From the IMG/VR virus record IMGVR_UViG_3300043607_000069, positions 1-37,690 of that record: a stretch of 37,690 nt of DNA; one strand, 5' to 3'. The stretch is from a virus. A program made the position numbers and the translations under genes. Under the pieces are notes generated by a model. It was given only the letters and a program-made list of their open reading frames with translations. It was not told the origin of the DNA and did not search any database. The number at the start of each line of letters is the position of its first letter. The first letter of the stretch is position 1. Shown piece by piece: positions 26,245-37,510 of the stretch.

Positions 26245-26375
26245 TGGAAGACAGAGACGACGACGAGATCGATCGCTCGGATACCGACGAAGCGGAAAGC
26301 GATTGGCAATCGGAATTCGATGCCATGCTCGATGCTGATGACCTGGAGGACGACGATGAGATTGAGAGTGAATAG
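26244..26375 (+). CDS. 43-residue highly acidic protein
   Basis: MEDRDDDEIDRSDTDEAESD with more than half Asp/Glu, joined by TGATG to the gene before it and overlapping the ligase start by 20 bases. Very acidic phage miniproteins can mimic DNA and block DNA-binding enzymes; here this is only an idea based on composition. It may also simply couple translation into the ligase gene. Confidence 0.58.
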   Translation: MEDRDDDEIDRSDTDEAESDWQSEFDAMLDADDLEDDDEIESE

Positions 26376-27633
26376 CCGAAAGGCGTTCGTGACCTTCTTC
26401 TCTCGGACGTCGAAGGGTCAATTGCAAACCTGGTCTTGTTGGATTGAAGCCGACGGGATCACGGTCACTAGCATGTGGGGGATCAAAGGCGGGAAGATGC
26501 AGATCACTCACGACACCATGACCAGTCGAGGACGGAAGGGTACGCTCGCTTTTAAATCACCGAAAGCCGTCGCGTTGGACGAGCATGCTCGACAGGTTGA
26601 GAAGAAGATGCGAGCCGGGTACGTGGAAGCCGAAGCACGAGCGCATGCAGTGCAGTTGGAGAAGTTGAAGACGGATCTGGACTTCGACCATTTGCCACGT
26701 GCCTTCGCACCAGCCAAGCCGATCCGCGAGCTCGACCCGGCTCTGGCCGCTGAGTGGGACAAACGTGGGTTGTTGACCATTCAGCGTAAGCGGGATGGGA
26801 TGCGGCACTACATTGTGGCTGGCCAGGATGGCGCCATTCACGTCTACAGCCGAGGGATGGACGACATGACCGCCCACTTCACCCGGCTCACCCAGGAGCT
26901 CACCTTGCCAGCGGGGACCATCCTCGATTGTGAGTTCGTGGTCATCACACCGAAGGGTGCCGATGACTTTATCGCGGTGTCGGAGATCTGCCGATCGAAG
27001 GCGGAACGTGCCGGTCGCACGATCGTGAGTTATGAGCACCAGGGATGCGTCGTCCAGTTCCTGGTGTTTGACCTTCTCTTCTACAATCGGCTTCCGACCT
27101 GGCAGTTGTCCTATCGAGATCGCTACAATGCGTTGGGGGTTGCGTTGGCGAAAGCGCACAGCGGTCATCGTGCACATTTCAATCACGTAGTCATGATGCC
27201 CAGGCTTACGAAACCATTAGCTGAGAGCATTCGTCGTGTGCAGAAACGCGGATGGGAAGGTCTGGTGTTGTGGCGGGCAGACCAGGCGACGCAGGTGCAT
27301 CTCAATCGTTCTCCCAAGCGATGCAACTGTTACAAGTTCAAGCCGATGGTGGAAGGAGATTTCGTCGCCACCGGCTACGAGCTCGGCAAGGGTCGGAACG
27401 GGAAGGTGGTCGGGGCGTTGAACCTTGGGATCTACGGCCATGCCAAAGGTCTTTTGGTCCCGATGGGCAATGTCGGAACCGGCTTCAGTGACAAGCAACG
27501 AGTGGAGGCGTTGCAGTGGAAGTATCCATGCGTCGTCGAAGTGAAGTATGAGAAGATGTCAGAGACCGGATTGCGGTTCCCGTCCTTCCTACGAAAACGG
27601 AATGACAAGAAACCGAAAGAGTGCAGATTGTAA
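26356..27633 (+). CDS. ATP-dependent DNA ligase with N-terminal WGR-like domain
   Basis: A 425-residue protein. Residues 1-90 (WSCWIEADGITVTSMWGIKG, and KMRAGYVE at the end) look like a WGR domain, which binds nicked or broken DNA ends. The ligase core follows: motif I KRDGMR at 145-150 with the adenylated Lys145, LDCEF at 190-194, FLVFDLL at 235-241, EGLVLW at 301-306 and YKFKP at 326-330. Residues from about 334 form an OB-fold. It seals nicks during replication or repair. GGAGGA precedes the chosen ATG. The WGR part sits on the ligase itself, which is an uncommon arrangement. Confidence 0.88.
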   Translation: MRLRVNSRKAFVTFFSRTSKGQLQTWSCWIEADGITVTSMWGIKGGKMQITHDTMTSRGRKGTLAFKSPKAVALDEHARQVEKKMRAGYVEAEARAHAVQLEKLKTDLDFDHLPRAFAPAKPIRELDPALAAEWDKRGLLTIQRKRDGMRHYIVAGQDGAIHVYSRGMDDMTAHFTRLTQELTLPAGTILDCEFVVITPKGADDFIAVSEICRSKAERAGRTIVSYEHQGCVVQFLVFDLLFYNRLPTWQLSYRDRYNALGVALAKAHSGHRAHFNHVVMMPRLTKPLAESIRRVQKRGWEGLVLWRADQATQVHLNRSPKRCNCYKFKPMVEGDFVATGYELGKGRNGKVVGALNLGIYGHAKGLLVPMGNVGTGFSDKQRVEALQWKYPCVVEVKYEKMSETGLRFPSFLRKRNDKKPKECRL

Positions 27634-27645
27634 AAGGAGAAGGTG

Positions 27646-28293
27646 ATGAAGAAGGACAAGGCCGAAGTCAAAGAAAGCGAAGTAACCGTTAAGGCTCCAC
27701 GCATCGGTTCAGCGATATTTAAGATTCAAGGTACGGCTCCGTTCGTGTCAAACAAATTCAGTGAGGAAATGAAAAAGGCCATGCGAGACAAGCAGGCCGA
27801 AGGAGGAACGGCAAAAAGCAAACACGCCAAGAGGGATCCGAAGGACTTTGAAAAACGTGCGCAACAGTCGTTGCATGTCAGTACAGACGGCTGGATTGGA
27901 TTCCCGGCGTCGGGAATTCGGAAAGGTCTGATCTCGGCTTGTCGGCTTGTGAACTTTAAGATGACGATCGCTAAGATGTCGGTGTTCATCGAGCCGGATG
28001 GATTCGACAAGGAAGACGGTACTCCACTTGTTCGATTCCTGAAAGGAACACCGCGCCATGTCGAGCATTACGTTCGTTTGTCGAATGGTGCTCCGGACAT
28101 TTGTCCGCGCATGATGTTCGACCCAGGATGGGAAGCGTCTGTTCGGGTGCAATTCGATGAGGATCAGTTCACATTGACCGACATCGCCAATCTGTTAACC
28201 AGAGTCGGTCTGCAAGTCGGAATTGGAGCCGGTCGGCCAGACTCGACTTCATCTTCTGGTATGGGATGGGGAACGTTTCGTATCGTGAACTAA
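27646..28293 (+). CDS. Conserved phage protein of unknown function (recombination context)
   Basis: A 215-residue protein (MKKDKAEVKESEVTVKAPRI) behind AAGGAGAAGGTG. Its segments recur in many phage proteins of unknown role: IFKIQGTAPFVSNKFSEE, KHAKRDPKDFEKRAQQSLHV, GWIGFPASGIRKGLISACRL and the Gly-rich VGIGAGRPDSTSSSGMGWGT near the end. The Gly-rich loop and alternating beta-alpha layout recall RNA-recognition-motif-like (RAMP/Cas7-type) folds, but this is only a resemblance. Neighbours are DNA ligase and recombination enzymes, so binding nucleic acid is a reasonable inference. Confidence 0.7.
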   Translation: MKKDKAEVKESEVTVKAPRIGSAIFKIQGTAPFVSNKFSEEMKKAMRDKQAEGGTAKSKHAKRDPKDFEKRAQQSLHVSTDGWIGFPASGIRKGLISACRLVNFKMTIAKMSVFIEPDGFDKEDGTPLVRFLKGTPRHVEHYVRLSNGAPDICPRMMFDPGWEASVRVQFDEDQFTLTDIANLLTRVGLQVGIGAGRPDSTSSSGMGWGTFRIVN

Positions 28294-28299
28294 AACCTA

Positions 28300-28626
28300 G
28301 CTGGTCAGGATCTGTATAGCACCGCTCACTCCAGCGAGTTAGTGTCCGGTCATGCGGAGTTTGGTCATGCAAAGTTAAGCTGGCTATGCTTAGTACTGCA
28401 TTACGTAGTCCGGTGTAGTCGGGTATAGTTGAGTGATGTTTGGTAGTGTAAAGCAAGGCAGGTTAAGCGAAGTCAAGTGAGGTGACGTGCAGAGGAGTGC
28501 CGTAATGTGGAGTGAGGCCTAGCAAATTCAAAGCATAGCAGGCAATGCACCTCAAAGTACGGTAATGTGAAGAGGAGTCGTGTACGGTATGGTTACGTGT
28601 AGCAGAGTCCAGTCGAGTCTAGCGGG
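28300..28626 (+). repeat. Degenerate pentamer array, G-pyrimidine-N-N-N
   Basis: From just after the preceding stop to 30 bases before the next gene, the DNA reads as consecutive 5-base units starting with G. By hand, 58 units start with G in four phase blocks (28304-28334, 28344-28379, 28383-28458, 28462-28622), and 55 of these have T or C next. The other three bases vary freely. In the last block 29 of 33 expected positions are G. Phase changes are single-base slips. GGTCATGC appears at 28348, 28363 and 28634. No gene, tRNA or CRISPR structure is present. Confidence 0.85.
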
Positions 28627-28655
28627 CGATTTCGGTCATGCGAAAAGGAGTGTGT

Positions 28656-29135
28656 ATGAAATATGTGTGGGCAGACGGATCAATGTTCACGTCAAAACAA
28701 TTTGATCCGAACGTTGTAGGTGAGTATCTCGTAGAAAGGAAAATCGACACGGCGGAAAAGTTCGTGGAGGATGCAACCTCCATGACATCCCCGCTTCACA
28801 TGTTCATTGACTGGGATAATCAAACGGCCGCGCACGAATACCGTTTGGTTCAAGCACGATCCGTTATCCGTTCTCTGAAGGTCGTATACGAGAAGTCGAA
28901 CGGGAAGGCCTATAGTGTGAAAGCGTTCACACACCTTCGATCCATAGGAGCGTATGCTCACGTGGTCAAGATTCGGTCAATGGTATCACTTCGAGAGGAG
29001 GCTATTCAACAAGCATTGCACGACATGGAAGCGTTCACACGTCGATTTGAGTCATATCGGGAACTCGCAAAGATCGGTAGCATGGCTCAGCGGCAGATTT
29101 CGAAGCTGCTGAAAAAACGAAAACGTATCGCTTGA
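28656..29135 (+). CDS. Conserved phage protein, unknown
   Basis: A 159-residue product (MKYVWADGSMFTSKQFDPNV) with AAAGGAG upstream. It matches a common phage pattern: an opening Y.W.DGS, then AEKFVEDATSMTSPLHMFID, WDNQTAAHEYRLVQARSVIR, and a helical C-terminal half with KIRSMVSLREEAIQQALHDM. Function in other phages is not established. It is directly downstream of the pentamer array, which might control it or be its target. Confidence 0.7.
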   Translation: MKYVWADGSMFTSKQFDPNVVGEYLVERKIDTAEKFVEDATSMTSPLHMFIDWDNQTAAHEYRLVQARSVIRSLKVVYEKSNGKAYSVKAFTHLRSIGAYAHVVKIRSMVSLREEAIQQALHDMEAFTRRFESYRELAKIGSMAQRQISKLLKKRKRIA

Positions 29136-35691: not shown

Positions 35692-36512
35692 GACTCGAAT
35701 TGGCGCATGTTGTTGTCATCGGCGGAGGGTTTGTTGGTCAACTGATTCAGTGGGCCATGCCGTCCGTCCGACTCCTGGACTGGCGCAAAACCGCTCCAGC
35801 GAATCATCTCGAGACCCGCATGGTCGGTCCGCAATATTTATGGGAACCGATTCCCGGTGTTGAGTCGTATTCGTTCGAAGTCGAAACCCTTGTAGATTCC
35901 GCTCCACCAACACCGGAGTCCGTCCTCGCCTACAAACGAAAGATCGGCAAGGAACATGACGGCGGTGATTGGGGACTTCAATTTCAACATCTCACTACCG
36001 GCTGGCACAGCCAACTCCCGACACCACGAGTCGAGTATAACCAACATGTCAAAGCCGTGGACCTGTCTGGACACCGACTCAGGATGGCGGACGGCCGCAT
36101 CATTGAATACGACGTACTGCTGAACACCGTCCCCTTGGACGCGTTCCTTAAACTCTGCCTCATCTCACCGCCGATCTATACTCCCTGGAAACAAGATCGT
36201 ATCTACCTGCGCACAGAAACCTTGGACGGCTCCTACGCCGGAATGCGATTGAATTATCTCTCCGATCCCACTAGTCGATTTTACCGTCAGACACTCACCG
36301 CCGATAAAATGTTCTTTGAGACCTTGGAACCCGGTCCGGACGTGAAGCCGCTTCCACTCGGCAAAATTCATCCGCATCCTCAAAGCGAAGACGTGCTCCG
36401 AGCATTGAAGGTGTTCGACACGTTCTGTTTCGGTCGTTTTGCGACATGGCGACCAGATGAGCTCGCGCATCAGACTTGGCAGAACATTCTCGAATGGAAG
36501 GGGACGCTGTGA
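35688..36512 (+). CDS. FAD-dependent oxidoreductase-like protein
   Basis: A 274-residue protein with a dinucleotide-binding start, LAHVVVIGGGFVGQLIQWAM, a GxGxxG-type loop in a Rossmann fold. VKAVDLSGHRLRMADGRIIE and YDVLLNTVPLDAF are the usual later strands. The end, FGRFATWRPDELAHQTWQNI, matches the C-terminal FAD-contact region of UDP-galactopyranose-mutase or amine-oxidase-like enzymes (G-R-x-A-x-W). Length is short for that group, so parts are missing. A role in modifying bases or surface sugars is possible. The substrate is unknown. Confidence 0.65.
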   Translation: MRLELAHVVVIGGGFVGQLIQWAMPSVRLLDWRKTAPANHLETRMVGPQYLWEPIPGVESYSFEVETLVDSAPPTPESVLAYKRKIGKEHDGGDWGLQFQHLTTGWHSQLPTPRVEYNQHVKAVDLSGHRLRMADGRIIEYDVLLNTVPLDAFLKLCLISPPIYTPWKQDRIYLRTETLDGSYAGMRLNYLSDPTSRFYRQTLTADKMFFETLEPGPDVKPLPLGKIHPHPQSEDVLRALKVFDTFCFGRFATWRPDELAHQTWQNILEWKGTL

Positions 36513-37510
36513 ACTTCAAGGCTATGCTCGAAGATCAACGAGCCTTCAACCAACAGATCTTTCCGGGTGGACTCGCGTGCCCGGTTGATAGTGAGTCCGA
36601 TACCGATCGGTTCCGAGTACGGTTGAAAGATCTGGCACTCGGAATGATCGAAGAGACCGGAGAGTTCCTCCGCACCTTCGAATGGAAGTCCCATCGGCGT
36701 CGGCAGGGCAAGCTTCAGAACGTCGCCCACTCGCACGAAGAACTTATCGACATGTTCAAGTACTGGTTGTCCTGTGCTGAGCTCGCAGAGTTCCCGATGG
36801 ACCGGCTGGAGGAACTCTATTACGCTAAGAGCCGGGTGGTGCAGTACCGCTACCAAGAAGAGTGGATGAAGCGGATTGACGGTCCATGTGTCTTGGTGGA
36901 CATTGACAATGTGTTGGCGGACTACATTCAAGGTGTCTGTCTCTGGGCAAAAGAACACGCACCGGCCTTGCTCAAACTGTCTAACACCTTGACCATTCGA
37001 CTAGCCGACAATCTAGATCGATTACGAGCTTCACACGATTACGTGAACGCTTCTAGTGTCGGTCTGTCAGCCGGTGAATGGAATGCGGTCAAGCACGGCT
37101 TCCGCACGCAAGGCGGAAAACGAACCCTGCCAGTGTTCCCCGACGCCAAGATCTTTCTCGACTGGTGCCGACGTCAAGACTGGAAAATCATTCTAGTCAC
37201 TAGCAGGCCGATCGATCGCTACCCGAACATCTTCACTGACACGCTAACCTGGCTTCACAACAACGACCTGCCATTCGACTATCTCTGGTGGGCTGACGAT
37301 AAGGCTCGACGGCTGGATGAGTACGGCGACATCCCACTGCGGCTCCATGTGGTGTTCGCGGTGGATGACGACCTCACGTTCATTAACCAGTATCGGACCA
37401 AGGGTATTCGCTGCTACTGGCTCAATCGTCGGACCTCAGAAACCCCTACCCACATCTCGGTTGTTCACTCACTGATGGAACTCATGGAGAAGGAGAAGGT
37501 ACATGCCTGA
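36509..37510 (+). CDS. Fusion: NTP pyrophosphatase/dUTPase-like + HAD nucleotidase
   Basis: A 333-residue protein started at GTG (36509), GTGA-coupled, with GGAAGGGG upstream. Residues about 42-110 are an all-alpha NTP-pyrophosphatase/dUTPase-like domain (MIEETGEFLRTFEW; SHEELIDMFKYWL). Residues 125-330 are a HAD phosphatase with VDIDNVLADY (Asp131, Asp133), LVTSRP (Thr231) and a late VDDD at 286-288, like 5'(3')-deoxyribonucleotidases. Joined, they could turn dUTP or another dNTP to dNMP and then to nucleoside, shaping the dNTP pool. The two halves usually exist as separate proteins. Confidence 0.8.
   Translation: MNFKAMLEDQRAFNQQIFPGGLACPVDSESDTDRFRVRLKDLALGMIEETGEFLRTFEWKSHRRRQGKLQNVAHSHEELIDMFKYWLSCAELAEFPMDRLEELYYAKSRVVQYRYQEEWMKRIDGPCVLVDIDNVLADYIQGVCLWAKEHAPALLKLSNTLTIRLADNLDRLRASHDYVNASSVGLSAGEWNAVKHGFRTQGGKRTLPVFPDAKIFLDWCRRQDWKIILVTSRPIDRYPNIFTDTLTWLHNNDLPFDYLWWADDKARRLDEYGDIPLRLHVVFAVDDDLTFINQYRTKGIRCYWLNRRTSETPTHISVVHSLMELMEKEKVHA

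What the first reader, a model, noticed from the sequence alone, without database searches (positions are those of the whole stretch)
28300..28626. Non-coding array of about 58 pentamers obeying G-Y-N-N-N
The whole gap between two genes is written in 5-base steps beginning with G and then T or C, with the other bases unconstrained. By hand 55 of 58 in-phase G bases are followed by a pyrimidine, and phase is kept for 160 bases in the last block. This is not a simple microsatellite, because the units differ from each other; only the period and two positions are conserved. Five bases is about half a helical turn, so alternate G-Y steps face the same side. This could be a landing strip for an oligomeric protein, a replication or recombination start, or a partition/packaging site. 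Neighbours are a ligase and a possible nucleic-acid-binding protein.
Basis: seen in the sequence. Interest (0 to 1): 0.88.

Follow-up and report, generated by a model that had tools for sequence, protein, structure and literature searches.

The report
Phage VIPR guide-RNA array (vrRNA array)
The odd five-base rhythm is most likely a bank of four guide RNAs that this phage uses, with the CRISPR-like protein encoded next door, to find and silence DNA of rival elements; such "VIPR" systems were first described in a 2026 preprint, so this is a new, somewhat unusual member of a very recently discovered kind.

Summary
In detail: G-Y pairs recur every 5 bases (45 vs 13.4±3.1 in dinucleotide shuffles, z=10) and the gap is non-coding. 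It is not a DNA landing strip. The gene abutting it (27646-28293, phrog_4652) is a RAMP/Cas7-like protein: its family profile hits the solved "SUSP1 Vipr protein" (36pp, E=1.7e-7) and its predicted fold matches Csm3/Cmr4/Cas7 (Z≈11.7). The array is therefore best read as the vrRNA array of a VIPR (Viral Interference Programmable Repeat) system, described in preprint PMC13142463: RNAs of GGY/NN pentamers whose NN pairs guide a RAMP filament to dsDNA with a 1-nt skip. In 74 of 77 loci with this gene a period-5 array lies in the locus (0 of 65 control loci), always on the gene's sense strand (1895 vs 0 GGYNN units). The window holds four blocks of about 16 pentamers delimited by 4-nt RGCN units. 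Unusual here: the first base is relaxed (NGYNN; G in 16/59) and there is no 3' tail. Targets were not found; expression and targeting are inferred. Verdict: new member of a known, very recent kind.

The parts
27646..28293 (+). vipr: RAMP (Cas7-like) protein, 215 aa, phrog_4652
   Evidence: Profile of 36 homologues hits PDB 36pp 'SUSP1 Vipr protein' E=1.7e-7; AlphaFold2 model pLDDT 85.5 matches Cmr4/Csm3/Cas7 subunits, Foldseek E 1.2e-5, Z 11.7; glycine-rich loop VGIGAGRPDSTSSSGMGWGTF conserved
28299..28624 (+). vrRNA array: four blocks of NGYNN pentamers delimited by 4-nt RGCN units
28303..28381 (+). block A, 15 pentamers + 4-mer AGCT (79 nt), putative guide; NN = CA TC AT AC TC CC GA AG CC CA GG TT CA AA TA
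28382..28460 (+). block B, 15 pentamers + 4-mer GGCA (79 nt), putative guide; NN = TA TT AC AT GT CC GT CG AT TG GA TT AG AA AA
28461..28540 (+). block C, about 15 units with one 6-nt unit + 4-mer AGCA (80 nt), putative guide
28541..28624 (+). block D, 16 pentamers + 4-mer AGCG (84 nt), putative guide; NN = AA AC AA AC AA GA GG CG AC AT TA GT AG CC CG CT
28656..29135 (+). putative vap (vipr-accessory) gene, 159 aa, phrog_15946; start chosen for the AAAGGAG just upstream (28638 is the longer alternative)
   Evidence: phrog_15946 E=4.7e-13; homologue found beside vipr in nearly all relatives; confident model (pLDDT 91) without a convincing PDB fold match
26320..27633 (+). ATP-dependent DNA ligase, upstream neighbour (context only)
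   Evidence: PF01068 E=9.7e-16; a ligase gene also neighbours the VIPR locus of phage SUSP1

Best explanation
28299-28624 is the guide-RNA (vrRNA) array of a phage-borne VIPR system. It is transcribed with the vipr and vap genes; RAMP-type Vipr subunits bind the RNA, probably one per pentamer, gripping the conserved (G)GY and displaying the two variable bases; the displayed dinucleotides pair with double-stranded DNA as NN-x-NN-x... (one skipped base per pair), and the bound complex blocks transcription of the target, probably a gene of a competing phage, prophage or satellite. Shown here: the array, its block structure, strand bias, tight association with a RAMP gene, RAMP fold. Taken from the preprint for related systems: RNA binding, 1-nt-skip code, repression. 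Inferred for this window: expression, processing at the RGCN borders, one subunit per pentamer, actual targets.
For: Adjacent gene is a Vipr/RAMP: PDB 36pp hit E=1.7e-7, Cas7/Csm3 fold; our profile also hits the SUSP1 Vipr read from its genome, E=1.7e-12 in a two-sequence search. Preprint PMC13142463 defines VIPR by a phage RAMP plus GGY/NN pentamer RNAs. Array-gene association: 74/77 loci with the gene have a period-5 array, 0/65 unrelated viral loci; 1895 GGYNN units on the sense strand, 0 on the antisense strand. The same triad stands in cultured phages: Cyanophage Cy-LDV1, Gordonia ODay/Ecliptus/UmaThurman/Pipp, Mycobacterium Quico/Gorge, and in bacterial contigs. In SUSP1, the type member, I find the four GGYNN runs (13, 11, 14, 12 units) at the reported positions. 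NN dinucleotides of 1375 units fit codon positions 1-2 in sense better than any other codon phase or strand (log-likelihood per NN -2.720 vs -2.785 next, r=0.66; window alone -163.2 vs -167.0 next), as expected if the skipped base is the wobble base. Blocks are hypervariable between close relatives with near-identical genes.
Against: No target found: five 1-nt-skip scans with the window's blocks gave 0, 1, 1, 1 and 7 hits whose extension beyond the seed was at chance level. The first base of the unit is G in only 16/59 units, against 37/50 in SUSP1 and mostly 0.7-0.98 in relatives. No structured 3' tail as in SUSP1 (fold z=0.30). Accessory gene shows no similarity to the SUSP1 vap. The NN fit could partly reflect avoidance of C at the first variable base.
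Confidence: 0.93

Rival explanations
1. A double-stranded DNA site (landing strip, origin, partition or packaging site) bound by an oligomeric protein that reads G-Y every half helical turn.
For: Period 5, long array, location among replication-type genes (ligase, helicase, exonuclease).
Against: Orientation relative to the adjacent operon is invariant in all relatives; arrays occur in several copies flanking vipr/vap and change fast at the NN positions; the linked protein has an RNA-guide-binding RAMP fold; 4-nt units break helical phasing.
Confidence: 0.03
2. An RNA scaffold or sponge bound by the RAMP protein without sequence targeting (for example regulation of its own operon, or a decoy).
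For: Period, strand and gene linkage would be the same; no targets were found for the window's blocks.
Against: Hypervariable NN with conserved GY, fast replacement of whole blocks between close relatives and codon-like NN composition point to guide content; the preprint shows targeting for related systems.
Confidence: 0.03
3. A neutral degenerate pentanucleotide microsatellite generated by slippage.
For: Tandem period 5, duplicated blocks in some relatives.
Against: Units are unlike each other at NN while GY is held; present beside one gene family in phages of Actinobacteria and Cyanobacteria and in bacterial contigs of several phyla, and absent from 65 control loci.
Confidence: 0.01

Closest known systems
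VIPR system of Escherichia phage SUSP1 (type II; PMC13142463)
   Same: RAMP-type Vipr gene (profile match), accessory gene, intergenic sense-strand runs of (G)GYNN pentamers, phage-borne, DNA ligase gene close by
   Different: SUSP1 has separate vrRNAs of 11-14 units each followed by a 3' tail; the window has contiguous blocks of about 16 units divided only by 4-nt RGCN, a relaxed first base, and an unrelated accessory gene
Class 1 CRISPR RAMP subunits (Cas7/Csm3/Cmr4)
   Same: Fold and glycine-rich loop (Z about 11.7)
   Different: No CRISPR repeats and spacers beside it; guide units are 5 nt with only two variable bases instead of contiguous spacers
VIPR 'staggered arrays with overlapping vrRNAs' mentioned in PMC13142463 (fig. 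S18)
   Same: Possibly the same architecture as the tail-less contiguous arrays here

Membership tests
VIPR system | Vipr: small RAMP homologue | tested here: met
   36pp 'SUSP1 Vipr protein' E=1.7e-7; RAMP fold
VIPR system | Glycine-rich loop and RRM-type core for guide RNA binding | tested here: met
   Conserved VGxGEGRPDSKxSAGMGWGTF in alignment; Z 11.7 to Cmr4/Csm3-type subunits over model residues 19-215
VIPR system | Intergenic tandem pentamers with conserved G-Y core and hypervariable dinucleotide, 9-16 units per RNA | tested here: met
   52/59 units NGY, four blocks of about 16 units; the first base (full GGY) is rated in a separate row
VIPR system | Strict GGY (first base G) | tested here: inconclusive
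   G in 16/59 units here; but SUSP1 itself has 37/50 and the preprint allows 'a related consensus'; relatives mostly 0.7-0.98
VIPR system | vipr-accessory (vap) gene | tested here: inconclusive
VIPR system | Targets match NN-x-NN-x (1-nt skip) | tested here: inconclusive
   NN composition fits codon positions 1-2; no real target found
VIPR system | vrRNA expressed and bound by Vipr | not testable with these tools
   Needs small-RNA sequencing and co-purification
VIPR type II (SUSP1-like) | Each repeat tract followed by an invariable structured 3' tail | tested here: not met
   Blocks follow each other directly with no recurrent tail, no excess folding (z=0.30)
CRISPR-Cas class 1 | CRISPR array of near-identical repeats with unique spacers beside the RAMP gene | tested here: not met
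   The repeat finder shows no repeat family of that kind at 28280-28680

The most novel reading that the evidence does not exclude
The window carries an undescribed VIPR code variant: tail-less, contiguous 79-84-nt blocks of about 16 units with a relaxed NGYNN repeat, in which the first base is free or even contributes to target reading, and in which 4-nt RGCN units mark guide ends.
Probability: 0.3. Interest if true: 0.65.

Novelty: new member of a known kind. Interest (0 to 1): 0.55.

Why it matters
VIPR is a proposed ancestor of CRISPR that reads DNA through a gapped RNA code. This locus and the 77 relatives collected here show that tail-less, block-structured arrays are common beside one Vipr family (phrog_4652) in phages of Actinobacteria and Cyanobacteria and in bacterial contigs, and that the first base of the unit can be relaxed, which makes it testable which bases of the pentamer the protein needs and where guides end. 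It also suggests re-labelling of 'hypothetical protein' and 'intergenic' annotations in cultured mycobacteriophages and Gordonia phages.

Tried and rejected
Simple microsatellite, decayed gene, DNA site: see rivals. TRAP-like (11 x GAG/UAG) ring and RecT/Red-beta-like 5-nt footprint were considered and dropped once the fold was known and because some carriers encode separate RecT/bet proteins. Target search: 1-nt-skip patterns from blocks A-D in IMG/VR gave only seed matches (outside-seed agreement near chance). A guide shared by three contigs (L030/L034/L036) gave 55 hits, but flanking units never fully matched and the antisense peptide [DE]R[IM]AVV[DE]T looks like a common coiled-coil motif: inconclusive. 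One Bradyrhizobium prophage guide against 266 genomes gave 3 hits with two mismatches vs 2 for the reversed control: chance. Scanning all arrays against 0.8 Mb of fetched DNA with skips 0-3 gave only a slight excess for skip 1 (5 windows with at most one mismatch vs 2, 1 and 1). NN+first-base triplets read as codons contain stops in two of four blocks, so the first base probably does not mirror the wobble base. The accessory protein has no convincing PDB fold match.

Full report
Observation. The stretch 28300-28626 shows a strong 5-base rhythm: 45 G-Y pairs repeat at lag 5 against 13.4±3.1 in 2000 dinucleotide shuffles (z=10.2) while lags 3, 6, 9 and 12 are below shuffle level and all frames contain stops. 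It is the strongest period-5 region of the window. Parsed properly, the array runs 28299-28624 and consists of four blocks of about 16 pentamers (N-G-Y-N-N; 52 of 59 units fit) separated by 4-base units RGC(N) that are always followed by GGY: positions 28299, 28378, 28457, 28537, 28621, spacings 79, 79, 80 and 84.

What sits around it. Upstream, directly abutting, is a 215-aa gene (27646-28293; phrog_4652, unknown function); before it an ATP-dependent ligase. Downstream is a 159-aa gene (28656-29135; phrog_15946). All are on the + strand like the array.

Related sequences. Fifty-four IMG/VR loci, isolated phages and 16 bacterial contigs encode relatives of the upstream protein or its module. 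Of 77 such loci 74 contain a period-5 array (two of the three others, L032 and L057, end within or about 100 bases after the gene), and none of 65 unrelated viral loci does. In relatives the unit is GGCNN or GGTNN, in blocks of mostly 8-13 units each closed by a 4-nt GGCA. In every locus the G-rich strand is the coding strand of the gene: 1895 units sense, 0 antisense. Order varies (vipr-array-vap-array; vap-array-vipr-array; array-vipr-vap). Arrays of close relatives with near-identical genes differ almost completely at the NN positions, whole blocks are duplicated within or between arrays, and 147 distinct blocks were collected.

Identity of the protein. A profile of 36 homologues finds one solved structure: 36pp, 'SUSP1 Vipr protein', E=1.7e-7. 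The AlphaFold2 model (pLDDT 85.5) matches Cmr4/Csm3/Cas7 RAMP subunits (Foldseek E 1.2e-5; Z 11.7, rmsd 3.1 over 148 residues). The preprint PMC13142463 describes VIPR systems: a phage RAMP (Vipr), an accessory gene (vap) and RNAs of alternating GGY/NN; each NN pairs with double-stranded DNA with one skipped base, causing transcriptional repression, mostly of competing phages, prophages or satellites. As a positive control I read the SUSP1 locus: vipr and vap lie between gaps that hold four runs of 13, 11, 14 and 12 pentamers, next to a DNA ligase.

How it most likely works. Shown here: array grammar, strand, association, fold. Known from the preprint for relatives: RNA binding by Vipr, 1-nt-skip reading, repression. 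Inferred for this window: the array is transcribed with its operon, cut or staggered at RGCN borders into four guides, and coats with Vipr, probably one subunit per pentamer. Independent support for the code in this family: the NN dinucleotides of 1375 units resemble codon positions 1-2 in sense (r=0.66; log-likelihood per NN -2.720 against -2.785 for the next model), and the window's own 59 NN show the same order (-163.2 vs -167.0), as expected if the skipped base falls on the wobble position. This is suggestive, not proof; a simple avoidance of C at the first variable base would push in a similar direction.

What is different here. First base G in 16/59 units against 37/50 in SUSP1 and mostly 0.7-0.98 in relatives; 16-unit blocks at the long end of the range; no 3' tail (fold z=0.30).

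Targets. None identified. Five scans of IMG/VR with 16-18 specified bases from the four blocks gave 10 hits in all, none extending convincingly beyond the seed. Other attempts are listed under Tried and rejected. The lack of a target is expected if the rival element is not in the collection, but it leaves function inferred.

Verdict. It is best explained as a VIPR guide array: a new member of a kind first reported in 2026.

Noticed in passing
L063:3933-4199 and L064:3935-4204 (Mycobacterium phages Gorge, Quico); Donkeykong, Philus, Brocalys, Pippy: vrRNA arrays of cultured mycobacteriophages lie under or beside small ORFs annotated 'hypothetical protein' (Gorge gene 53, Donkeykong 48, Brocalys 45); these ORF calls are probably spurious.
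   Followed up: partly
L063:4188-5405 (Gorge gp54): Annotated as one 405-aa protein, it looks like a vipr gene that loses its reading frame after about 128 codons and then runs into the vap gene; the close relative Quico has the two genes separate and intact.
   Followed up: partly
L024, L026, L033, L034 array ends: In this sub-clade arrays end with GGCA GGCAA YACAC GGCG followed by a short hairpin and TATAAAAGG; could be a terminator or an RNA tail.
   Followed up: no
blocks listed, many loci: The last pentamer before the 4-nt GGCA border is often GGCAA/GGCAC/GGCAT, so the border signal may be longer than 4 nt.
   Followed up: no
L043:16429-16902: Another period-5/period-15 region is a pentapeptide-repeat coding sequence (A-D/N-L-x-x), not a guide array.
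   Followed up: yes
window 36476-37510: ORF joins a MazG-like pyrophosphohydrolase part (residues 11-129) and a polynucleotide-kinase/HAD-like part (135-336).
   Followed up: no
L098-L152: A guide conserved in three contigs has 55 exact 1-nt-skip matches in IMG/VR, many antisense to an ERIAVVET motif of small coiled-coil phage proteins; flanking units do not match.
   Followed up: partly
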